DNA from: Pseudokineococcus lusitanus
Lineage (GTDB): Bacteria; Actinomycetota; Actinomycetes; Actinomycetales; Quadrisphaeraceae
Assembly (NCBI RefSeq): GCF_003751265.1
Contig: NZ_RJKN01000002.1
Span: forward strand, 496,001-560,000
Length of the DNA: 64,000 bases
Direction: 5' to 3'
Below, piece after piece: positions 4,530 through 64,000 of this stretch. Positions within the stretch are counted from its first letter, which is position 1, and each line of letters starts with the position of its first letter. The notes beneath the pieces were generated by a model, which worked only from the letters and a program-made list of their open reading frames with translations, ran no database searches and was not told where the DNA came from. The translations under genes and the position numbers were made by a program.

Positions 4530-5544
4530 GACGACCACGCTGCGCCCCCGCCCGGCCCCGCACAACGGGTCGGTCGGGGGTACCACCGCGGGTCCCACCC
4601 TCGCGGGCACCGCCCGGCCCGTCGGGGCGCCGCGCGACGACCTCGCGGCGTGCCTGCGCGCCTGGCGCGAGCGCCTCTCCCCCGAGTCCGCCGGGCTGCC
4701 CGCCGCCCCGCTGCGCCGGGCGCGCGGCCTGCGGCGCGAGGAGGTCGCGTCCCTGGCCGGCATCTCCGTCAACTACCTCGTGCGCCTGGAGCAGGGACGG
4801 GCCCAGGCGCCGTCGGCGTCCGTCGTCGCGGCGCTGGCCGCGGCGCTGCGACTCGATCCCGACGAGTCCGAGCACCTGCACCGGCTCACCGGGCTCGCCG
4901 TCCCGACGCCGCGCGTCGCCGGCCGCGAGGTGACGCCGTCGCTGCGGCGGCTCGTCGACCGCTTCGCCGACGTGCCGCTCATCGTCGTCGACGCCGCGTG
5001 GGGCGTCGTGGCCGGCAACCCGCTGGCCGCCGTCTTCCTCGGCACGGACCCCGTCGGGGAGAACGCCGCGCGCCGCCAGTTCCTCGGCCCGCCGCTGGTG
5101 CGCCGGGCCGCCGTCGAGGACGCCGCCTTCGAGCGCGACGTCGTCGGCGAGCTGCACCGCCAGGCCGTCCGCCACCCCGACGACGCGGGGGTCCGCGCCG
5201 TCGTCGCCGAGCTCCGCGAGCACTCGCCGCGCTTCGCGGCGCTCTGGGCCGAGCGGCCCGTCGGCCTCCACGCCTCGTCCCGCAAGACCTTCGACCACCC
5301 CGCCGTCGGCACGGTGACCGTCGACTGCGACGTCCTCGAGGCCCGCGGCACCGACCTCCGCGTCGTCGTCTGGACCGCGGCGCCCGGCACGGCGGACGCC
5401 GCGGCGATGGACCGGATGCGGGAGCTGGCAGCGGCGAGCAGCGCGTGGACCGCCGCCGACGGGACGGCCCAGGACCTGTCCCGTGGTCAGGACGGGTCGA
5501 CGACCGGGACGTCGAAGGGGCGCGTCGCGACCCCGGTCCCGTAG
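4528..5544 (+). CDS. XRE-family regulator with MmyB-like ligand-binding domain
   Basis: The protein (338 residues from this ATG) has an N-terminal helix-turn-helix, with RRARGLRREEVASLAGISVN followed by YLVRLEQG, the signature of actinobacterial XRE/MmyB regulators. A PAS-like MmyB domain follows, ending with the conserved ASSRKTFDHPAVG motif. It is divergent from the SDR gene at 3831-4529, which it probably controls. The first 35 residues are low-complexity and the true start could be the in-frame ATG at 4519. No GTG or ATG occurs between 4531 and the HTH. Its last 58 bases overlap the 3' end of the convergent RES toxin gene. Confidence 0.85.
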   Translation: MTTTLRPRPAPHNGSVGGTTAGPTLAGTARPVGAPRDDLAACLRAWRERLSPESAGLPAAPLRRARGLRREEVASLAGISVNYLVRLEQGRAQAPSASVVAALAAALRLDPDESEHLHRLTGLAVPTPRVAGREVTPSLRRLVDRFADVPLIVVDAAWGVVAGNPLAAVFLGTDPVGENAARRQFLGPPLVRRAAVEDAAFERDVVGELHRQAVRHPDDAGVRAVVAELREHSPRFAALWAERPVGLHASSRKTFDHPAVGTVTVDCDVLEARGTDLRVVVWTAAPGTADAAAMDRMRELAAASSAWTAADGTAQDLSRGQDGSTTGTSKGRVATPVP

Positions 5545-6128
5545 GGCCGCAGCTCGGCGAGCAGGGCCACGTCCTCGACCAGGCGGCCCACGCGGGTGCG
5601 CCACCCCCGCAGACGCGTCCGCGGGCCGGCAGGGCCGAAGAGCGCGACGCCGAGCGCCCGCGCGGCGGGGTCGTGCCGGACGGGCGCCACGAGCCCGGGG
5701 TGCCCCGCCGCCCGCAGCGCCCGCGCCCACCGCTGGGGCAGCGCGTACGCGCTGCCGGCGAAGAGGTCCGCCGTGACGCCGTGGCGGCGGGCGCCTGCGG
5801 CGTGGAGGTCCGCGAGGGCCAGCGACGTCCCGGTGCGCTCCGCGGTCACCATCCGACGGCGCTCGACGTCCTCCCGGTCGACGAGGCCCGTGCCGCGGAA
5901 GACCTCGAGCCAGGCGCCGCTGCGTCGGTCGGCGAGGTAGCAGGTGCCCTCGGGGGGCGGGAGGTCGTACCGACCACCGCCGTCGGACGGGTCGCTCGAG
6001 AAGAAGAACGGCTCGCGGGCACGACCGTCCCTTCCCCGGGCCCGGACGACCCGGTGGAGGACGTCCCCGCTCCGCACCTCGCGGGTGGGGAAGCCGTCCA
6101 GCGACGGCGGTGGCGACGTCGCCGGCAT
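5487..6128 (-). CDS. RES-domain toxin (predicted NAD+ phosphorylase)
   Basis: This 213-residue protein is a RES-domain toxin. Known members (MbcT, ParT) degrade NAD+ by phosphorolysis or ADP-ribosyl transfer. An N-terminal LHRVVRA stretch supplies the conserved Arg, followed by FFSSDPSDGGGRYDLP, then TCYLADRRSGAWLEVF with the conserved Tyr and Glu. Its ATG at 6128 overlaps the stop of the upstream antitoxin as TGATG, so translation is probably coupled. Antitoxin-first order is the usual arrangement for this family. The 3' end overlaps the convergent XRE gene by 58 bases. The family call is strong; activity is inferred. Confidence 0.85.
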   Translation of the reverse strand: MPATSPPPSLDGFPTREVRSGDVLHRVVRARGRDGRAREPFFFSSDPSDGGGRYDLPPPEGTCYLADRRSGAWLEVFRGTGLVDREDVERRRMVTAERTGTSLALADLHAAGARRHGVTADLFAGSAYALPQRWARALRAAGHPGLVAPVRHDPAARALGVALFGPAGPRTRLRGWRTRVGRLVEDVALLAELRPYGTGVATRPFDVPVVDPS

Positions 6129-6679
6129 CAGGCGGCCAGCGCCCGCGCCCACGCCCTCGCGGAGGCCACGGCCGCGGCGACGTCGCCCTCCCGCAGGCGC
6201 TGGACGGGCGTGTCCCCGTCGAGGTCCGGCTGGGCGGAGACGAACCAGGACGCCACCGTCCACCGCGACACCAGGTCCTCCGGCAGCTCCCGGAGGACGC
6301 CGTCGACCCCGGCAAGGGGTGCGCCGCCGACGAGCTGGAAGCGCGGGTAGACCACGCGCCCCGACCCCGTGGTCAGGGCGAGGAGGCCTCGCCGCTTGCT
6401 GACGGCCTGCCGGGAGACGGGCCGGCCGTCCCGCGCGAGCACCGTCCGCAGGCCGTCGACGTCGTAGAAGCCGCCGAGGTGGTCGGTCCAGCGCTCCGCC
6501 GAGCCGAGCACGTGGTCGACGGCCTCCGCGGCCGCCACCCCGGGGTCGTCGATGCGGTCGAGCACCGTCCCTGCCGGGTCGCGCAGCAGCAGCTCGCCGA
6601 GCACCCGCTCGAGGAAGGACCGCTGCACGGCCGACGCCCGGCCGAGATCGGCACCCTCGTGAGCCACCGCGTGCGTCAT
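6128..6679 (-). CDS. antitoxin of RES system, Xre/MbcA/ParS-like
   Basis: This 183-residue protein precedes the RES toxin in the same operon. The middle contains a DNA-binding-like segment (SRQAVSKRRGLLAL, then GRVVYPRFQL) typical of actinobacterial antitoxins partnered with RES toxins. The C-terminus (SWFVSAQPDLDGDTPVQRL, then GDVAAAVASAR) matches the Xre/MbcA/ParS toxin-binding domain in which the antitoxin plugs the NAD+ pocket. The ATG at 6679 has a GAGG ribosome-binding site 7 bases upstream. Direct repeats at 6723-6739 upstream may be its operator, since such antitoxins usually autoregulate. Confidence 0.83.
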   Translation of the reverse strand: MTHAVAHEGADLGRASAVQRSFLERVLGELLLRDPAGTVLDRIDDPGVAAAEAVDHVLGSAERWTDHLGGFYDVDGLRTVLARDGRPVSRQAVSKRRGLLALTTGSGRVVYPRFQLVGGAPLAGVDGVLRELPEDLVSRWTVASWFVSAQPDLDGDTPVQRLREGDVAAAVASARAWARALAA

Positions 6680-27688: not shown

Positions 27689-29479
27689 TCAGCGCGCCGC
27701 GCACCACCGGTCGAGCTCGTCCACGGGCAGCGGCCGTGCGTAGTGGTAGCCCTGCGCCATGTCGCAGTCGAGGTCCTCGAGGGCGCGGCGCTGGTCCGGC
27801 GTCTCGACGCCCTCCGCGACGGCCCGCAGCCCGAGGGAGTGCGCGAGGTGGACGCACGTGGCGACGATGGCCGCGTCACCGCGGCTCTCGGTGAGCCCCG
27901 CGACGAAGGACCGGTCGATCTTCAGCTCGTCGAGCGGGAACCGCTGGAGGTACGTGAGGCTCGCGTAACCGGTGCCGAAGTCGTCGACCGCGAGGGTGAC
28001 GCCGAGCGCCTTGAGCGCCCGCAGCGTCGCGGCGGCCGCGTCCGGGTCCTCCATGAGCGCCGTCTCGGTCACCTCGAGCGTGAGCAGCGCCGGGTCGAGC
28101 CCGTGCCGGTCCAGCACCTCGGCGACGAGCGGCACGAGGTCCGGGTCGCCGAGCTGGCGCGTCGAGAGGTTGACGGCGATCTCCGTCGTCGGGCCGCCTC
28201 CCGCCGTCCGCGCCCACGCCGCCCCCTGGGCCACGGCGGAGTCCAGCACCCACGCCCCGAGGCGGCGCACGAGGCCCGACTCCTCGGCGACGTCGATGAA
28301 GTCGCCGGGCTGGAGCAGCCCGCGCTCGGGGTGCTGCCACCGCACGAGCGCCTCGACGCCGGCCACACGGTCGCCCCGCAGGTCCATGCGGGGCTGGTAG
28401 TGCACGCGCAGCTCGCCCTCGGCGATGCCGCGGCGCAGCTCGCCGATGAGCCGGAGACGTCCGACGGCCGGGTCGACGACGTCCGGGTCGTGCAGCTCGA
28501 CACGGGCGCGGCCGCGTGCCTTCGCCCGGTGCATCGCGACGTCGGCGTGGTGGAGCAGCCGCTCCGGCGTCTCGTCGGGCGTGGCCCGGACGACCCCGAC
28601 GCTCGCCGTGACGACGATCTCGACGTCCTGCAGGAGCACGGGCGCCGTGACGACGTCGAGCACCCGCTCGGCCACCGCCCGCGCGGCGCCGTCGTCCCCG
28701 ACGTCGGCCACGACGACGAACTCGTCGCCGGACAGGCGCGCGACGACGCCGTCCGCGCGGACGGTCGCGGTGAGGCGCTGCGCGACGACGCGGAGCAGCT
28801 CGTCGCCGGCCTCCCGACCGAGGCTGTCGTTGACCGCCTTGAAGTGGTCGAGGCCGACGAAGAGCAGCGCCGTCCCGGCGGACGCCGGCCGGCCGCCCTC
28901 CGGCGCACCGGCGAGTCGGGCCAGCAGGCCGGCGCGGTTGGGCAGGCCCGTGAGGTCGTCCCGCAGCGCCCGCTGCCGCATCTCCTCCTCGACGGCGACC
29001 CGCTGCCGCTCGGCTTCCTGGGCACGGCGCAGCGCGTCGACGAGGTCACGCTCGTGCCGGCGCCGCTCGTGGGCGGCGAGGACGATGACGCGGATCTCGG
29101 CCGGCACCCCGTCGGCCGCCGGCCGGAGGGTCGCCGACAGCAGGACCGCCCGGCGGGAGCGGTCCGCGGCGATGACCTCGACCATCGTCTCGGCCACGGC
29201 ACCGGTGGCCCGCAGCCGCGGCAGGCAGGAGGCGCTCCAGAGGATGCGGTCGCCCACGGGCAGCAGCCGCGGCAGGCGCGTCCCGAGGAGCTCCTCCGCG
29301 GTGTAGCCGGCCCAGGCGCAGAAGGTCGCGTTGACCCGGGTGATGGTGCCGTCGTCCGCCGTCGTGAGGTAGCCGCAGGGGGCGTCGTCGTAGAGCTCCC
29401 GGAGCCGGTCCGCCTCGTCGGCCCGCGGCGGGCGCCCCTCCGGGGACGCGTCGGCGGAGGGCTCGAGCGTCGTCGTCAT
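27689..29479 (-). CDS. PAS-GGDEF-EAL c-di-GMP signalling protein
   Basis: This 596-residue cytosolic protein has a PAS domain (about 22-135, YDDAPCGYLTTADDGTITRV), a short coiled coil (135-170), a GGDEF domain (170-330) with SGDEF at 250-254, and an EAL domain (340-590). The EAL domain keeps its catalytic set: EALVRW, AVNLSTRQL, LEVTETAL, DDFGTGYASL, LKIDRSF and AEGVETPDQ. The GGDEF domain has VGLDHFK where DLDHFK is normal, losing a metal-binding Asp, so cyclase activity is doubtful. The ATG overlaps the stop of the RsbQ-like gene (ATGA), so the two are coupled. Confidence 0.92.
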   Translation of the reverse strand: MTTTLEPSADASPEGRPPRADEADRLRELYDDAPCGYLTTADDGTITRVNATFCAWAGYTAEELLGTRLPRLLPVGDRILWSASCLPRLRATGAVAETMVEVIAADRSRRAVLLSATLRPAADGVPAEIRVIVLAAHERRRHERDLVDALRRAQEAERQRVAVEEEMRQRALRDDLTGLPNRAGLLARLAGAPEGGRPASAGTALLFVGLDHFKAVNDSLGREAGDELLRVVAQRLTATVRADGVVARLSGDEFVVVADVGDDGAARAVAERVLDVVTAPVLLQDVEIVVTASVGVVRATPDETPERLLHHADVAMHRAKARGRARVELHDPDVVDPAVGRLRLIGELRRGIAEGELRVHYQPRMDLRGDRVAGVEALVRWQHPERGLLQPGDFIDVAEESGLVRRLGAWVLDSAVAQGAAWARTAGGGPTTEIAVNLSTRQLGDPDLVPLVAEVLDRHGLDPALLTLEVTETALMEDPDAAAATLRALKALGVTLAVDDFGTGYASLTYLQRFPLDELKIDRSFVAGLTESRGDAAIVATCVHLAHSLGLRAVAEGVETPDQRRALEDLDCDMAQGYHYARPLPVDELDRWCAAR

Positions 29480-30303
29480 CGGTCGAGGTACGCGAGGACG
29501 GCCGCCGCGGTCTCGGCGGGCGCGGACAGGTGCGGGCAGTGCCCGCTCGCGTCGAGGTGGACCAGGGTGCTGCCCGCCAGCCGGGCGAGGAGGTGGTCCC
29601 CGACCTCGGGCGGGGCGAGGACGTCGTCGACGCACTGCAGGACGAGCGCGGGCACGGTGACGCGGGCGAGCAGGTGCCGGACGTCGGAGTGGAAGGTCAC
29701 GCGGGCGAAGTGCCGGGCGATGTCCGGGTCGGTGGCCTGGAAGCTGCCCGTCAGCCGCTCGCCGAGCTCGGGGGTGCCGGGGTTGCCCATGACCATCGGC
29801 GCGATGGTCGCGGCCCAGGCGGAGTAGTTCGCGTCGAGGGACTCGAGCAGCTCGTCGACGTCCTCCCGCGAGAACCCGCCGACGTACCCCGTGGCCGGGT
29901 CGTCGATGTAGCAGGGCGAGGGCGCGACGAGCACGAGGCGCGAGAACCGCTCGGGCTCACGGACGGACGCGAGCAGCGCCATCATCGCGCTGATGCTGTG
30001 GGCCACGACGACGACGTCGCGCAGGTCGAGCTCCTCGCAGACCTCGAGCAGGTCGTCCACGTAGCCGTCGAGGGACCCGTACTTCTCCCGGTCGTACGCG
30101 GACAGGTCCGACCCGCCCGCACCGACGTGGTCGACGAGGACGACCCGGTGCTCGGCGGCGAGCGCGGGCAGCATCGCCTGCCAGGCGCCCTGCTCGGAGC
30201 CGAAGCCGTGCAGGAGCAGCAGCGCGGGTCCGTCGGGGCGTCCGACCTCCGTGACGTTGTTGCGGCTGACGGCGGTGCGCCGGGGGGCGCGGATGGCGGG
30301 CAC
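29476..30303 (-). CDS. RsbQ-like alpha/beta hydrolase
   Basis: This 275-residue hydrolase closely resembles Bacillus RsbQ. Shared features include RNNVTEVGRPDG near the start, the LLHGFGSEQGAWQAMLPALA region, VDHVGAGGSDLSAYD, and VLQCVDDVLAPP. The catalytic triad is Ser103 (AHSIS), Asp226 and His255 (GHCPH), with spacing near that of the RsbQ triad. RsbQ supplies or processes a small hydrophobic ligand for the PAS domain of its partner RsbP. Here the coupled partner is the PAS-GGDEF-EAL protein. The GTG at 30303 follows GAGGAGG. Confidence 0.88.
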   Translation of the reverse strand: MPAIRAPRRTAVSRNNVTEVGRPDGPALLLLHGFGSEQGAWQAMLPALAAEHRVVLVDHVGAGGSDLSAYDREKYGSLDGYVDDLLEVCEELDLRDVVVVAHSISAMMALLASVREPERFSRLVLVAPSPCYIDDPATGYVGGFSREDVDELLESLDANYSAWAATIAPMVMGNPGTPELGERLTGSFQATDPDIARHFARVTFHSDVRHLLARVTVPALVLQCVDDVLAPPEVGDHLLARLAGSTLVHLDASGHCPHLSAPAETAAAVLAYLDR

Positions 30304-30556
30304 GACGGTCCTCCTCGGGCACGAGGTCCACGCAGCGGGTTGCACGTCGCCTCGGCGGTGCATCGGCAGCGGCGGCCGTCACCTTGAGCCGACGCCGGAC
30401 GCTGTCTCACCCGTCCGCCCGTGCTGCCCGGGGCTGTCGACCTGCGCCGTTCCCCGTACGCCCGCCCCACCAAGCCGCTATCCCTGTGTCACCGGTCGCG
30501 ACCGAGCGTCCGGACGCCGCGCCCGACGGTCGGGCCTGCGCCCCAGGGAGGCCCCC

Positions 30557-31699
30557 GTGGTCACCACCCGCCCCATCCGCCGATCCCCCGCCCCGTCGCG
30601 CCGCCGTCGCACCGCCCTCGCCGGCGGCGTCGCCGCCCTCGCGCTGCTCCCCGCGAGCGCCGTCACCGCGAGCGCCGACCACCTCCCCGACGACGAGGTC
30701 GTCGCCCGCGACCTCAGCGGCGCCCTCTCGATCGCCGCGACGCGCGGCGGCGACCTGCTCGCCACCCGTTCCTTCGAGGGCGCCGTCGAGCGGATCGGCC
30801 ACCACGGCGCGCGGACCGACGTCCTGTCCCGCCCCGGCGAGGAGGTCGCCGGGCTCACCGCCACGGCCGACGGCTTCGTCAGCACCCGGTCCGCCGGGCT
30901 CGGCCCGGACGCGACCGCGCTCGTCGAGCGCACCGACCGCCGGGGCCGGACGACGACGGTCGTCGACCTCGCCGCCCACGAGCGCGCGACCAACCCCGAC
31001 GGCGACGCCCGCTACGGCTTGCTCGGCCTCGACGAAGGGTGCGCGGCCCAGGTGCCCGACGGCGTCCCGGTGGACGAGCCCGGCGAGGTCTACTCCCACC
31101 CCTACGCGACCGCGGACCTCGGCGCCGGCCGGCTGGCCGTCGCGGACGCCGGCGGCAACGCCGTCCACGTCGTCGACGCGCGCGGGCGCGTCCGGGCCAG
31201 CGTCGCGCTCCCGCCCCAGCTCATGGCCGCGGACGACTACCGCCTCGCCGACCTCGGCATCCCCGCCTGCGCGGCGGGCGCCACCTTCGCCGTCGAGCCG
31301 GTGCCCACGGACGTCGAGGTGGGTCCGGGCGGGGACCTCTACGTCAGCCTCCTGCCGGGCGGGCCGCTGGACGGCTTCGGCGGCGAGCGCGGGTCGGTGG
31401 TGCGGGTGGACGTCGACCCTGTGCTGGCGGGGACCGGTCCGGCGGTCGTCACGACGGTCGTCCGCTACCTCGACGGACCGACGGGCATCGCGGTCGGCCC
31501 CGACGGCAGCGTCTTCGTCAGCCAGGAGACGGGGTACGTCAAGGCCTTCTACCGCCCGACGCCGGACGCCGTCGGCACCGACCTGTACTGGGGCGGCGAC
31601 GGCGGGGACGTCGAGCTCGTCGGCAAGCACGTGTGGTTCTCGACCGGCGTGCTGCGGCCGGGCACCGGCGAGGTGCGCTCCGTCCGCGTCTACCGCTAG
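30557..31699 (+). CDS. ScyD/ScyE family secreted beta-propeller protein
   Basis: This 380-residue exported protein has a signal peptide ending around ASAVTASA and a repeat domain with NHL-like strands: VSTRSAGLGPDATALVERTD, RRGRTTTVVDLAAHE, EVYSHPYATADL, AVADAGGNAVHVVD, PTDVEVGPGGDLYVSLLPGG, PTGIAVGPDGSVFVS. The architecture matches the ScyD/ScyE family, named after cyanobacterial genes but widespread in actinobacteria without known role. The GTG follows GGGAGG. It is a paralogue of 32918-34066. Confidence 0.85.
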   Translation: MVTTRPIRRSPAPSRRRRTALAGGVAALALLPASAVTASADHLPDDEVVARDLSGALSIAATRGGDLLATRSFEGAVERIGHHGARTDVLSRPGEEVAGLTATADGFVSTRSAGLGPDATALVERTDRRGRTTTVVDLAAHERATNPDGDARYGLLGLDEGCAAQVPDGVPVDEPGEVYSHPYATADLGAGRLAVADAGGNAVHVVDARGRVRASVALPPQLMAADDYRLADLGIPACAAGATFAVEPVPTDVEVGPGGDLYVSLLPGGPLDGFGGERGSVVRVDVDPVLAGTGPAVVTTVVRYLDGPTGIAVGPDGSVFVSQETGYVKAFYRPTPDAVGTDLYWGGDGGDVELVGKHVWFSTGVLRPGTGEVRSVRVYR

Positions 31700-32917: not shown

Positions 32918-34066
32918 ATGGACCACTCCACCCCGGCGCACTGCTGCGCCACCGACCCCACCGCCGGCCCGACCGGCTCCCGCACCCCTCGGCCACGACG
33001 ACGTCGGGCCGTCGCGGCGGGCGCGCTGCTCGCCACCGCGCTCGCCGGGACGCCCGCCGCCGCCACCGCCGCGGACGCCCCGGAGGTGCACGTCGTCGCG
33101 GAGGGCCTCGTCGGCCCGCTCTCGCTCGACGTCCAGGGCAACGGCGACGTCGTCGTCGCCCAGTCGTTCGCCGGGCTGCTCACCCGCGTCGGCGCGGACG
33201 GCACCCGGGCCGACCTCGTGACCCTGCCCGGCGCCGAGGTGGCCGGCGTCTCCGGCGCCTCCAAGGGGGGTGCCGTCTACACGCACAGCGAGGGCCAGGG
33301 CCCGGACGCCGTCGCCCGGGTCGAACGCGTGGACCGGCGGGGGCGCGTCACCGTCCTCGCCGACCTCGCCGCCCACGAGCGGGAGACCAACCCCGACGGC
33401 GCGACGACGTACGGCTTCCGCGACCTCGCGGCCTCCTGCCTCGACCAGCTGCCCGAGGAGTTCCCGGGTCGCTACACCGGCGAGGTCTACTCCCACCCCT
33501 ACGCGACGGCGGCGCGCAGCGGCGACCGGACGGTCGTCGCCGACGCCGGCGGCAACGCGCTGCTCCAGGTCGGGCCGACGGGCCGGGCCCGGACCCTCGC
33601 CGTCCTGCCCGCCCAGCCGGCGACGGTGACGGCGGACCTCGCGGCCGGCAACGGCCTGCCCGACTGCGTCGTGGGGTCGCAGTACTGGTTCGAGCCCGTG
33701 CCCACGGACGTCGAGGTGGGCCCCGACGGCAGCCTCTACGTGAGCCTCCTGCCCGGCGGGCCCGAGGACCCGAGCCTCGGGGCGCGCGGGTCGGTCGTCC
33801 GGGTCGACGGCAGCGGCCGCACGACGACCGTGCTGACCGGCCTGCTCGGCGCGACCGGCGTGGCCGTCGACGGGCGCGGCCGCGTCTACGCGACCGAGCT
33901 CTTCGGCGGCCGTGTCGTCCGTGCCGTACCGGGCAGCACGACGGGCGAGACGGTCGTCGACCTCCCGCTGCCCGCGGCCGTCGAGGCCTCGCGGGGCGAC
34001 CTGTGGGTGAGCACCGACGTCCTCAGCGAGACCGGTGGGGCTCAGGTGGTCCGCGTCGACCTGTAG
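32918..34066 (+). CDS. ScyD/ScyE family secreted beta-propeller protein
   Basis: This 382-residue protein is a paralogue of the gene at 30557-31699. It has a signal peptide (after a Cys-containing leader) ending in TPAAATAADA, and the same repeat motifs: GEVYSHPYATAA, VVADAGGNALLQVG, EPVPTDVEVGPDGSLYVSLL, GVAVDGRGRVYATELFGG. No catalytic motif can be named. Its upstream region carries a CRP-type site and a candidate ECF promoter like those between the CHRD and sigma genes, suggesting shared control. Confidence 0.86.
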   Translation: MDHSTPAHCCATDPTAGPTGSRTPRPRRRRAVAAGALLATALAGTPAAATAADAPEVHVVAEGLVGPLSLDVQGNGDVVVAQSFAGLLTRVGADGTRADLVTLPGAEVAGVSGASKGGAVYTHSEGQGPDAVARVERVDRRGRVTVLADLAAHERETNPDGATTYGFRDLAASCLDQLPEEFPGRYTGEVYSHPYATAARSGDRTVVADAGGNALLQVGPTGRARTLAVLPAQPATVTADLAAGNGLPDCVVGSQYWFEPVPTDVEVGPDGSLYVSLLPGGPEDPSLGARGSVVRVDGSGRTTTVLTGLLGATGVAVDGRGRVYATELFGGRVVRAVPGSTTGETVVDLPLPAAVEASRGDLWVSTDVLSETGGAQVVRVDL

Positions 34067-53152: not shown

Positions 53153-55435
53153 TCAGATCATGCCCGCCCGGGTCCGGTCGCCGTCGGGGCGCCCGGTGGC
53201 CGGGCCCGCGGGTGCCGCCGCGAGGGGGAGCCGCGGCGCGGGCACGGGCGGCACGGGCGGCACGGGCGGCGGGTCGCCGAGGACGCCCGCCGCGTAGTCC
53301 GCCGCCGCGAGCGGCCGGGAGAACAGCCAGCCCTGGCCGTAGCGGACGCCGAGCTCGACGAGCCGGGCCCGCTGCTCCGGCGTCTCGACGCCCTCGGCGA
53401 GGACGTCCAGGCGCATGGTCCGCGAGAGCGCCGCGAGCCCCGCGACGACCTGGCTGCGGCCGGGCAGCGCCTGGACGACGGAGCGGTCCACCTTGAGCAG
53501 CGTGACGGGGAAGCGCTCGAGGTAGTCCAGCGACGTGTAGCCGGTGCCGTAGTCGTCGAGGTGCACCTCCACGCCGAGCCCGCGCAGCCGCTGCAGCGTC
53601 GCCGCGAGGCCGTCGTCGTCGGGCAGGGGCTCGTGCTCGGTGATCTCCACGCGCAGCTGGCGGCCGGGGACGCCGGCACGGGCGAGGCCGTCGGCCACCC
53701 GGTCGGCGAGCGCCGGGTCGAGCAGGCTCGAGCGGGTGAGGTTGACGCTGACGGGCAGCACGCGGCGGCGCTGGTCGCGCCAGCGGCCCATCTGCTCGAG
53801 CACCTCGGCGAGGACGGCGGCGTCGAGCTCGGCGTCCAGGCCCGTCGTCGCGACGTGGCCGAGGAACGCGTCGGGCGCGAGCAGGCCCTGCTCGGGGTGG
53901 CGCCAGCGGACGAGCGCCTCCGCGCCGACGACCTCGCCCGTCCGCAGCTCGACGAGCGGCTGGTAGTGCATCTCGAGGCGGCCGACCGCGGGCGACCGCC
54001 CGCCGAGGAGCTGGCGGACCTGGCTCGTGAGGGTGAGCCGCTCGACGACGGCCTCCCGCTGCTCCGGGGCGTAGACCCGCGCCCGGTCGCGGCCGTCGCC
54101 CTTCGCCGCGTAGAGCGCGACGTCGGCGCGCGTCAGCAGCTCCGACAGGCCGAGGCCCGGGACGGGGGGCGTGACGCCGACGCTCGCGGTGCAGCGCACC
54201 GAGACCCCGCCGGCGCCGTCCACGACGACCGACGCGCGCATGGCCGCGACGACGCGCTCGGCGACGGCGACCTCGCGGCCCGGGTGGACGAGGACGGCGA
54301 ACTCGTCGCCGCCGAAGCGCGCGACGACGCCGTCGTCCGCGACGGCCTCGAGGAGGCGGGCGCGCACGACGAGGAGGAGCTGGTCGCCGGCGTCGTGGCC
54401 GTAGCTGTCGTTGACGTCCTTGAAGTCGTCGAGGTCGACGAGCAGGAGCGCCCACGGGTGCTCGGCCTGGTCGTGGACGCGGGCGAGGCCGCGCCGGTTG
54501 CGGAGGTCGGTGAGGGGGTCGTGCTCGGCCTGGTGCTCGAGCCGCCGGGTCGCGGCGAAGGCGCGCAGCACCGCCGTGGCGGCGGAGAGGGTGCCGACGG
54601 CGATGTGGAGGGCCTCGGGCAGCGCGCCGGTGCCGAGCTGGCGGTCGACGGCCCAGAGCCCGGCGGGGGCCAGCACGAGCGGCAGCGCCGCGAGGACGAC
54701 CTTCGAGCCGGCGGCGCGCTCCACGAGCGCCTCGGCGACGAGGGCGGAGCGGGAGCTCGGCAGCAGCGCCGCGACGGCGAAGAGGAGGCTGCCGGCGCCG
54801 AGCGCGAGGGCGGGGAGGTCGCCGGCACCGGCCGCGAGCGGCTCGGCCAGGCCGCCGGTCGACATGAGGACGGCACCCAGCAGGAGCGTCACCCACGCCG
54901 GCTGGAGGCGGCGGCGCGAGAGGGCGAGCCGGCCGAGGAAGGCGGTGATGACGACCTGGACGCTCGCGAGGGCGGCGACCGGGCGCTCCTCTCCGAGGAG
55001 CTGCGCCACCTGCACGACGGCCAGCACGACGACGACGAGGACGGTCACGGTGTCGAAGAGGTCCGGCCGCCGACGGGCCCGCGCGACCCACCGCATGACG
55101 ACGACGACGAGGACCCCGGCCATGACGAGGCAGAGCGCGTCGCAGACCTGCTGGGCGACGACGACGTCGTGCGCCTGGGCGAGCCGGCCGACGCCCCACG
55201 TGGCCATGACGGCGGCGACGAGGAGCCAGAGCCACGCGTTGGTCTGCCGGTGCACGAGGACGCCGACGACCATGACCGCCGCGGTCGCGACGCCGCACAC
55301 GAGCAGGGGCGTGACGCCCGCCGCGAGCGCGGCGAGGGCCACGAGGAGGAGCACCACGACGGCAGCCGTCGGCAGCGCGGGCGGCCGGGCCCCACGGGCC
55401 GGCGCCCGACGACGTCGTGCCGGCGTCTCGCTCAC
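53153..55435 (-). CDS. membrane GGDEF-EAL c-di-GMP protein
   Basis: This 760-residue protein has about nine hydrophobic segments in the first 310 residues, starting AAVVVLLLVALAALAAGVTP. A GGDEF domain follows, with the intact metal motif LLLVDLDDFKDVND and FGGDEF, then an EAL domain with EALVRWRHPE, SVNLTRSSLL, VEITEHEPL, DDYGTGYTSL and LLKVDRSVV. Both catalytic sets look intact. The C-terminal tail has PPVPPVPP repeats from a tandem DNA repeat near 53237-53270. The GTG at 55435 is preferred to 55522. Confidence 0.9.
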   Translation of the reverse strand: MSETPARRRRAPARGARPPALPTAAVVVLLLVALAALAAGVTPLLVCGVATAAVMVVGVLVHRQTNAWLWLLVAAVMATWGVGRLAQAHDVVVAQQVCDALCLVMAGVLVVVVMRWVARARRRPDLFDTVTVLVVVVLAVVQVAQLLGEERPVAALASVQVVITAFLGRLALSRRRLQPAWVTLLLGAVLMSTGGLAEPLAAGAGDLPALALGAGSLLFAVAALLPSSRSALVAEALVERAAGSKVVLAALPLVLAPAGLWAVDRQLGTGALPEALHIAVGTLSAATAVLRAFAATRRLEHQAEHDPLTDLRNRRGLARVHDQAEHPWALLLVDLDDFKDVNDSYGHDAGDQLLLVVRARLLEAVADDGVVARFGGDEFAVLVHPGREVAVAERVVAAMRASVVVDGAGGVSVRCTASVGVTPPVPGLGLSELLTRADVALYAAKGDGRDRARVYAPEQREAVVERLTLTSQVRQLLGGRSPAVGRLEMHYQPLVELRTGEVVGAEALVRWRHPEQGLLAPDAFLGHVATTGLDAELDAAVLAEVLEQMGRWRDQRRRVLPVSVNLTRSSLLDPALADRVADGLARAGVPGRQLRVEITEHEPLPDDDGLAATLQRLRGLGVEVHLDDYGTGYTSLDYLERFPVTLLKVDRSVVQALPGRSQVVAGLAALSRTMRLDVLAEGVETPEQRARLVELGVRYGQGWLFSRPLAAADYAAGVLGDPPPVPPVPPVPAPRLPLAAAPAGPATGRPDGDRTRAGMI

Positions 55436-63141: not shown

Positions 63142-64000
63142 TCAGCGCGGCTCGGGGACCGCGAGGAGGACGGCCCGGCCGGGCAGCGGGGGCGGCAGCA
63201 CGGCGCCCGGGCGGGGCGCCGTCGAGCCGTCGCCGTGGGCGACGACGCCGCCGCCGCGCTGCTTGGCGCGGTACATCGCCGCGTCGGCCCGCCGCAGCAG
63301 CGCCTCGCCGCCCGCGCCCTGCCCGGGCGCCGCGCTGACGCCGACGCTCGCGCCCACGACGACCCGTCCCGGGCCGAGCTCGTGCGGGACGGCGAGCGCG
63401 GCGTGGAGACGGCGGGCCAGCTCCTCGGCCTCCGGGAGCGAGCCCTCGGGCACGACGACGGCGAACTCGTCGCCGCCGAGGCGGACGGCGTGGCCGCCGC
63501 CGACCGCGCGCAGCCGGTCCGCGACCTGCCGCAGGAGGGCGTCGCCGGCGGCGTGGCCGTGGGTGTCGTTGACGGCCTTGAAGCCGTCGAGGTCGAGGAG
63601 CAGGACGGCGGTCGGCTCGTCGACCGACCGGGCCAGGTGCTCCAGCAGCGCCCGCCGGTTGCCGAGCCCGGTCAGCTCGTCGGTCTCGGCGTCGCGCCGC
63701 GCCCGCTGGTAGGCCGTCAGCGTCCGCAGCACGACGACGACCTTGCCGACGACGACGAGGACGGAGGCCGTCGCCGCGACGGACGCCGCGAGCGGCACGG
63801 GGGCGACCTGCGCGGCGAGCAGGACGCCGGTGCCGACGACGGTGAGGACGAGCGGGCCGATGACGGCCACGCGCTGGTCCTCGTCCCGCTTCACCACGCC
63901 GCGCGGGCGCGGCAGCACGGCCGCGAGCGCGAGCAGCCCGACGACGACGGCGGCGCAGGCGGCGAGGACCGAGCGCAGGTGGAGCAGCCCGACCCCCGCG
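63142..64000 (-). CDS. membrane GGDEF diguanylate cyclase (partial)
   Basis: The gene enters from the right edge, so the N-terminus is missing. At least three hydrophobic segments are visible (VLAACAAVVVGLLALAAVL, VIGPLVLTVVGTGVLLA, and LAASVAATASVLVVVGKVVV), then a GGDEF domain with DELTGLGNRRALLEHL, the intact metal motif LLLDLDGFKAVNDTHG and RLGGDEFAVV. The active site looks intact, so it should make c-di-GMP. No EAL domain follows. It is the third GGDEF protein in the window. Confidence 0.9.
   Translation of the reverse strand, partial: AGVGLLHLRSVLAACAAVVVGLLALAAVLPRPRGVVKRDEDQRVAVIGPLVLTVVGTGVLLAAQVAPVPLAASVAATASVLVVVGKVVVVLRTLTAYQRARRDAETDELTGLGNRRALLEHLARSVDEPTAVLLLDLDGFKAVNDTHGHAAGDALLRQVADRLRAVGGGHAVRLGGDEFAVVVPEGSLPEAEELARRLHAALAVPHELGPGRVVVGASVGVSAAPGQGAGGEALLRRADAAMYRAKQRGGGVVAHGDGSTAPRPGAVLPPPLPGRAVLLAVPEPR

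What the first reader, a model, noticed from the sequence alone, without database searches (positions are those of the whole stretch)
27689..30303. RsbQ-like hydrolase coupled to a PAS-GGDEF-EAL protein: a possible energy-sensing c-di-GMP switch
Seen: an alpha/beta hydrolase with an RsbQ-like triad (Ser103, Asp226, His255) and RsbQ-like flanking motifs overlaps by ATGA with a PAS-GGDEF-EAL gene. Known: in Bacillus, RsbQ is required with the PAS domain of the phosphatase RsbP to signal energy stress, probably by supplying a ligand. Inference: here the same hydrolase-PAS logic is wired to c-di-GMP turnover instead of a sigma-B phosphatase.
Basis: partly seen in the sequence, partly recalled or inferred. 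Interest (0 to 1): 0.75.

Follow-up and report, generated by a model that had tools for sequence, protein, structure and literature searches.

The report
RsbQ–PAS sensor driving c-di-GMP enzyme
Two overlapping genes encode a bacterial relative of plant strigolactone receptors and the c-di-GMP enzyme it probably switches; this pairing was described in 2011, so the locus is a well-conserved new example of a known sensor module, not a new kind of system.

Summary
The hydrolase (30303-29476, minus strand) overlaps a PAS-GGDEF-EAL gene (29479-27689) by ATGA. It is a true RsbQ relative: 48% identical to B. subtilis RsbQ, its best hit by sequence and by fold. One detail is wrong: the catalytic Asp is D227, not D226. 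The hydrolase groups with RsbQ. Of 131 homologues found in genomes of the window's phylum, 128 could be judged, and 120 of those have an RsbP-type PAS protein encoded immediately downstream: 87 phosphatases, 24 GGDEF-EAL, 4 GGDEF, 4 kinases, 1 undetermined. The idea is not new: Nadezhdin, Brody and Price (2011, PMC3183031) described this RsbQ-PAS module with phosphatase, kinase and diguanylate-cyclase outputs, three with EAL. The 'energy-sensing' label is unsupported; those authors call that assumption possibly gratuitous. What I add is a clade marker. The PAS F-alpha position matching RsbP F55 is aliphatic in 30 of 31 GGDEF-EAL partners (97 of 100 phosphatase partners: aromatic), and the RsbQ loop once proposed to touch RsbP is two residues longer. 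On the tree this is essentially one deep split, so it does not show co-evolution. Verdict: new member of a known kind.

The parts
29476..30303 (-). RsbQ-type alpha/beta hydrolase, 275 aa, GTG start; triad S103, D227, H255
   Evidence: 48% identity to B. subtilis RsbQ (125 of 260), fold match 1wom TM 0.93; triad S and D in 164 of 164 and H in 163 of 164 aligned homologues
29476..29479 (-). ATGA overlap of the hydrolase stop and the PAS-GGDEF-EAL start (translational coupling, inferred)
   Evidence: the same -4 spacing is the commonest one, 111 of the 157 pairs scored (a few loci there are copies of one another)
27689..29479 (-). PAS-GGDEF-EAL protein, 596 aa
29045..29434 (-). RsbP-type N-terminal PAS domain (residues 16-145)
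   Evidence: best match of the RsbP-type PAS profile in the genome, 5.7e-56 (the window is one of its nine rows); next place 1.5e-9
28967..29074 (-). single predicted helix, residues 136-171, joining PAS to GGDEF (signalling helix)
   Evidence: AlphaFold2 secondary structure; domain arrangement low confidence (pTM 0.47)
28505..28969 (-). GGDEF domain with SGDEF motif and no RxxD inhibitory site in register (register recalled)
27731..28441 (-). EAL domain, residues 347-583, with the catalytic motifs searched for (list recalled)

Best explanation
The two genes form one RsbQ-PAS sensory module with a c-di-GMP output. The hydrolase docks on the N-terminal PAS domain of its partner protein. Binding or turnover of an unknown small molecule in the hydrolase pocket changes the PAS dimer, and the change passes down the 36-residue helix to the GGDEF-EAL part, shifting c-di-GMP turnover. 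Shown here: gene order, family membership of both parts, conservation of the pair, intact triad, EAL motifs present, predicted linker helix. Inferred from B. subtilis RsbQ/RsbP: direct contact, need for the triad, direction of control. Inferred weakly: net output is probably c-di-GMP breakdown, because the EAL motifs are complete while GGDEF reads SGDEF and lacks the RxxD site.
For: RsbQ identity: 7.4e-80; proteins outside the RsbQ/KAI2/D14 group only from 5.9e-13 among the 60 shown; 125 of 260 identical to B. subtilis RsbQ. The PAS protein sits immediately downstream in 120 of 128 judgeable homologues, 120 of 125 if the three homologues under 43% identity are set aside. Pattern-found loci from several phyla: 40 of 40 judgeable also paired. 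The PAS is of the RsbP type and lacks the DIT motif, as in the 2011 class. It is the only close match to that PAS type, and the hydrolase the only close RsbQ match, in this genome. The adjacent genes of the window were not found in the flanks held for the homologous loci, including a sister genome of the same genus that keeps the pair. RsbQ and PAS distances correlate, r 0.80 over 155 pairs against a shuffled maximum of 0.18 (shared ancestry alone gives much of this). Published genetics: RsbQ binds RsbP-PAS and needs its triad.
Against: Three positions that matter in B. subtilis RsbP differ in the window PAS: F55 to L, Y59 to S, P86 to A. In B. subtilis F55A and Y59A are null and disrupt binding, and P86A is weak. 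Most other GGDEF-EAL partners keep H at the Y59 position (24 of 31), so the window is a minority even in its class. Numbering was carried over by spacing from C10, without the RsbP sequence itself. Five homologues with at least 43% identity and enough flank lack the PAS partner. No binding, catalysis or c-di-GMP data for this class were found in the searches.
Confidence: 0.8

Rival explanations
1. The hydrolase is a metabolic or detoxifying esterase that is merely co-transcribed with a c-di-GMP enzyme; the PAS domain senses something else.
For: Generic alpha/beta hydrolase models also match: NCBIfam enol-lactonase and esterase models from 1.9e-24, the 25 shown all far below their cut-offs. No activity data.
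Against: Pairing kept in 120 of 128 judgeable homologues with four output types; best matches are RsbQ and hormone-receptor hydrolases, not metabolic esterases; this PAS type has no second close match in the genome.
Confidence: 0.1
2. A version of the best explanation, model 2 of the 2011 paper: the hydrolase is itself the receptor, as in D14/KAI2. Ligand occupancy, not a delivered product, signals to the PAS; slow hydrolysis only resets it.
For: After RsbQ and one other bacterial hydrolase (3qvm), the nearest PDB relatives by sequence and fold are strigolactone and karrikin receptors; the RsbQ pocket positions F27, F136 and F196 are kept in the window, and V97 is I. Published as an explicit model.
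Against: No ligand known; sequence cannot separate receptor from ligand-producer.
Confidence: 0.45
3. A version of the best explanation, model 1 of the 2011 paper: the hydrolase makes a product that it hands to the PAS cleft; the PAS is the sensor.
For: Triad needed in B. subtilis; triad conserved here.
Against: The triad may be needed only for binding; PAS sequences are less conserved than RsbQ (27% against 48% average identity in the 2011 sets).
Confidence: 0.35

Closest known systems
RsbQ-PAS bipartite sensing module (Nadezhdin, Brody and Price 2011, PMC3183031)
   Same: RsbQ gene directly upstream of a protein whose most N-terminal domain is an RsbP-type PAS, no DIT motif, helix to the output; diguanylate-cyclase outputs already listed in both Gram lineages, three with a C-terminal EAL.
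   Different: In this clade the F-alpha position matching RsbP F55 is aliphatic and the RsbQ loop is two residues longer; the window has S at the Y59 and A at the P86 position. Figure 2 of the paper was not available, so I cannot say whether a close relative of this clade was among its 45.
B. subtilis RsbQ-RsbP energy-stress pair
   Same: Hydrolase with S-D-H triad, PAS partner, gene order.
   Different: Output is GGDEF-EAL instead of a PPM phosphatase.
KAI2 / D14 karrikin and strigolactone receptors
   Same: Same hydrolase family and fold.
   Different: 32-39% identity against 46-47% to RsbQ among the 50 fold matches listed; plant partners are not PAS proteins (recalled).

Membership tests
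RsbQ hydrolases | Ser-Asp-His triad (S96, D219, H247) | tested here: met
   window S103, D227, H255; S and D in 164 of 164 homologues, H in 163
RsbQ hydrolases | closest to RsbQ rather than other esterases | tested here: met
   1wom 7.4e-80; next groups 3qvm and KAI2/D14; outside that group 5.9e-13; fold 1wom rank 1
RsbQ hydrolases | pocket and gate residues F27, V97, F136, F196 | tested here: met
   window F34, I104, F144, F204; only V97 differs, conservatively
RsbQ hydrolases | hydrolase or ligand-binding activity | not testable with these tools
   needs protein
[quoted passage not shown]
   ATGA overlap
RsbQ-PAS module | PAS lacks the DIT motif | tested here: met
   window reads AAHERR where DIT would lie; no D[IVL]T in 34 of 34 GGDEF-EAL rows, the window's locus copy L058 among them; for comparison it occurs in 3 of 20 kinase and 1 of 97 phosphatase rows
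RsbQ-PAS module | nine characteristic PAS positions (75% consensus of the 2011 set) | tested here: inconclusive
   C10, L13, L48, Q53 (R), C56 (W) and E72 positions fit; F55 to L, Y59 to S, P86 to A differ; numbering transferred by spacing; which consensus class belongs to which position is in a figure that is not held
RsbQ-PAS module | helical or coiled-coil linker to the output | tested here: met
   36-residue helix 136-171; coiled-coil potential not scored
RsbQ-PAS module | direct RsbQ-PAS contact | not testable with these tools
   no complex prediction on hand; shown for B. subtilis only
bifunctional GGDEF-EAL enzymes | catalytic motifs | tested here: inconclusive
   EAL motifs (recalled list) present; GGDEF reads SGDEF, RxxD site absent; S or A at that place in all 9 rows examined, of which L009 and L202 are one sequence
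energy-stress sensors | response to energy depletion | not testable with these tools
   2011 authors: no experimental support for the assumption that the module senses energy, even in B. subtilis

The most novel reading that the evidence does not exclude
The c-di-GMP branch of actinobacterial RsbQ-PAS modules uses a re-shaped docking surface: an aliphatic F-alpha contact in the PAS and a 9-residue instead of 7-residue RsbQ loop. This would insulate it from phosphatase-type RsbQ-PAS pairs in the same cell. Two genomes (G137, G372) carry both kinds, each pair with its own interface type (L067/L141 and L098/L150).
Probability: 0.25. Interest if true: 0.5.

Novelty: new member of a known kind. Interest (0 to 1): 0.3.

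Why it matters
The signal of RsbQ was still called mysterious in 2011, no later identification turned up in the searches made, and RsbQ is the bacterial relative of plant strigolactone and karrikin receptors. A c-di-GMP output gives a simple biochemical read-out (c-di-GMP made or destroyed) with which the ligand and the direction of signalling could be tested outside the sigma-B network. The survey also shows one input module connected to several outputs: 11 changes of output type on the best RsbQ tree (fewer if its weakly supported branches are collapsed).

Tried and rejected
Unrelated-esterase reading: rejected. Chance adjacency: made unlikely and by the seven-locus control. Co-evolution of the RsbQ loop and the PAS F55 position: looked striking but rejected as evidence, because on the RsbQ tree with the loop columns removed only one of four independent loop changes goes with a change at F55; three do not. 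Output-specific interface: rejected in the strict form, since kinase-coupled L074/L076 and GGDEF-only L081 carry the long loop with V/M, three phosphatase-coupled rows have the long loop with F or Y, and Solirubrobacter GGDEF-EAL (L016) has the short loop with Y; the marker follows the RsbQ clade. The RsbQ tree was rooted on one distant paralogue, was a quick search, has 53 of 163 inner branches under 80 support and warns of long branches, so its root and deep order are not used. My first script picked wrong-frame downstream ORFs for some loci, corrected. A regex for loop length failed for some rows and was replaced by alignment columns. Full-length coordinates were recovered for only 8 of 19 loci tried, so motif counts rest on 9 rows. 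The profile for the PAS was built from nine of these same proteins, so its E-values for them are not independent. The genome searches scored at most 8 (order) or 6 (class, phylum) candidates per genome, so extra copies could be missed. Two kinase calls (L039, L040) rest on a weak local hit; Pfam found no family in L039.

Full report
Observation. The minus strand carries a 275-aa alpha/beta hydrolase from GTG 30303 to the stop at 29476 and a 596-aa PAS-GGDEF-EAL protein from ATG 29479 to 27689. They share ATGA. Pfam confirms the domains.

Identity of the hydrolase. The best solved relative by sequence is B. subtilis RsbQ (1wom, 7.4e-80), then an Oleispira hydrolase and the plant KAI2/D14 receptors. 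The first hit outside that group, among the 60 shown, is at 5.9e-13. Identity to RsbQ is 125 of 260 aligned residues. An AlphaFold2 model (mean pLDDT 93.2) matches 1wom first (TM 0.93, rmsd 1.3). The 25 NCBIfam models shown match only far below their cut-offs.

Identity of the partner. The PAS domain carries the APCGYL start and lacks the DIT motif. With a profile of nine RsbP-type PAS domains, the window's among them, the own genome gives this place at 5.7e-56 and one other at 1.5e-9. The genome has 33 GGDEF matches, one PilZ match and 12 SpoIIE-phosphatase matches, but one close RsbQ (the next hydrolase is at 1.6e-14). AlphaFold2 gives one helix, residues 136-171, between PAS and GGDEF, with poor confidence in domain arrangement (pTM 0.47). 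The EAL motifs searched for (a recalled list) are present. The GGDEF motif reads SGDEF, with S or A in that place in all nine rows examined, and the RxxD inhibitory site is not in register (register recalled). The nearest NCBIfam models are phosphodiesterases (DibA 3.9e-136), below their cut-offs.

Conservation of the pair. Searches with the hydrolase (E up to 1e-40 in the family search, 1e-45 in the others) hit 8 of 13 genomes of the family, 36 of 297 of the order, 74 of 394 of the class and 24 of 396 of the phylum. They gave 131 distinct homologues, the window's own included. Three lie at contig ends. Of the other 128, 120 have an RsbP-type PAS gene immediately downstream: 87 with phosphatase, 24 with GGDEF-EAL (the window included), 4 with GGDEF, 4 with histidine kinase, 1 with undetermined output (from the domain table with corrections; one of the 87, L114, is split by an apparent frameshift). 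The eight without are L094 (hydrolase frame interrupted by a stop, with a partial PAS match), L115, L135, L136, L140, L146, L187 and L188; three of these (L136, L187, L188) are below 43% identity. A separate pattern search of named genomes gave 41 loci: 40 judgeable, all with a PAS partner (10 GGDEF-EAL, 16 kinase, 13 phosphatase, 1 undetermined). Two of the 16 kinases (L039, L040) rest on a weak local hit, and Pfam found nothing in L039. That search selects by short peptides of the window protein, so its numbers are not a census, and some of its loci are the same genomes as in the other set. In the window's own family 8 of 9 homologues, the window among them, are GGDEF-EAL and one is a phosphatase. 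The two genes next to the pair, and two others further out, had no match at 1e-8 in the homologous loci longer than 4.5 kb, sister genome included. Those flanks reach up to about 6 kb, so only the nearest genes could be expected there. The pair thus stays together while its immediate surroundings change.

Prior knowledge. Of Nadezhdin, Brody and Price 2011 (PMC3183031) I read the abstract, the sections on module distribution, characteristic residues and substitution phenotypes, and the Discussion; the rest I saw only as passages. They report 45 RsbQ and RsbP-PAS pairs with phosphatase, kinase or diguanylate-cyclase outputs, three cyclases with EAL, and propose a common bipartite input module. 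They show by two-hybrid and pull-down that RsbQ contacts RsbP-PAS and that F55A breaks this contact, and they state that energy sensing by the module is an assumption without experimental support. The eLife 2025 paper (PMC12143880, passages) gives an AlphaFold2 model of RsbP with RsbQ. A 2020 SigB review (PMC7522486, passages on RsbQ) adds nothing on c-di-GMP there. A full-text search for 'RsbQ' with 'c-di-GMP' returned two papers: the 2011 one and an M. smegmatis paper that names both only in unrelated places (PMC10950880, passages). The library holds open-access papers only.

What is added. Numbering by spacing from C10, the PAS position of RsbP F55 is L or V in 30 of 31 distinct GGDEF-EAL partners (window included) and Y, H or F in 97 of 100 phosphatase partners. 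The Y59 position is H in 100 of 100 phosphatase partners and in 24 of 31 GGDEF-EAL partners, but S in the window. The P86 position is A in 20 of 31 GGDEF-EAL and in 2 of 100 phosphatase partners (per-row view). The hydrolase loop that Kaneko et al. speculated might touch RsbP (as reported) has nine residues in the window and in 29 of 30 GGDEF-EAL rows, and seven in 95 of 98 phosphatase rows. On an RsbQ tree built without the loop columns, the window falls in a 36-row set (support 98) of 29 GGDEF-EAL rows, 2 kinase, 1 GGDEF, 3 unassigned and the window. The loop changes four times, and only once together with the F55 position. So this is a clade marker, compatible with a re-tuned interface but not evidence for one. 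The best tree needs 11 changes of output type among four, so the input module has been re-wired repeatedly; some of those changes rest on weak branches. RsbQ and PAS distance matrices correlate at r 0.80, shuffled maximum 0.18 over 1000; shared descent explains much of that.

Mechanism. Most likely the hydrolase docks on the PAS dimer and, on binding or turning over an unknown small molecule, alters the helix that leads to GGDEF-EAL. The complete EAL motifs and degenerate GGDEF suggest a net phosphodiesterase, but this is a guess. The receptor model and the product-delivery model remain open.

Verdict. A clean, conserved, ordinary member of a module described in 2011. Interest 0.3: no surprise for a specialist, though it is a convenient handle on the unknown RsbQ signal.

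Noticed in passing
L194 (extends L074), L076, L128, L195 (extends L139): RsbQ-PAS pairs with histidine-kinase outputs in genomes of the window's phylum; the 2011 paper listed kinases for Gram-negative bacteria only. L194, L128 and L195 checked with Pfam.
   Followed up: partly
L189:3803-6175, L190:3813-6512: RsbQ partner proteins with two GAF stretches between the PAS and the phosphatase domain.
   Followed up: partly
L192:4986-5861 (same hit as L115): RsbQ homologue with no PAS partner, followed by a protease-like gene (by eye): a possible stand-alone RsbQ.
   Followed up: partly
L146:3986-5497 and 5073-6665: A third RsbQ homologue in genome G060 without a PAS partner, directly behind a gene that by eye looks like a methyl-accepting chemotaxis receptor.
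   Followed up: no
L114:2303-3486: PAS and phosphatase parts lie in two overlapping frames: an apparent frameshift in the partner gene.
   Followed up: no
L193:3771-5534 (same hit as L136): A 36%-identical hydrolase is followed by a PAS-GGDEF gene whose PAS did not match the RsbP-type profile; L187 and L188 are similar distant hydrolases near GGDEF or kinase genes.
   Followed up: no
window 30251-31699 and 32918-34066: Two neighbouring ORFs on the plus strand encode proteins that resemble each other by eye (no family search made).
   Followed up: no
window 54083-54529 and 63253-63690: Two more GGDEF domains in the same window (33 GGDEF matches in the genome).
   Followed up: no
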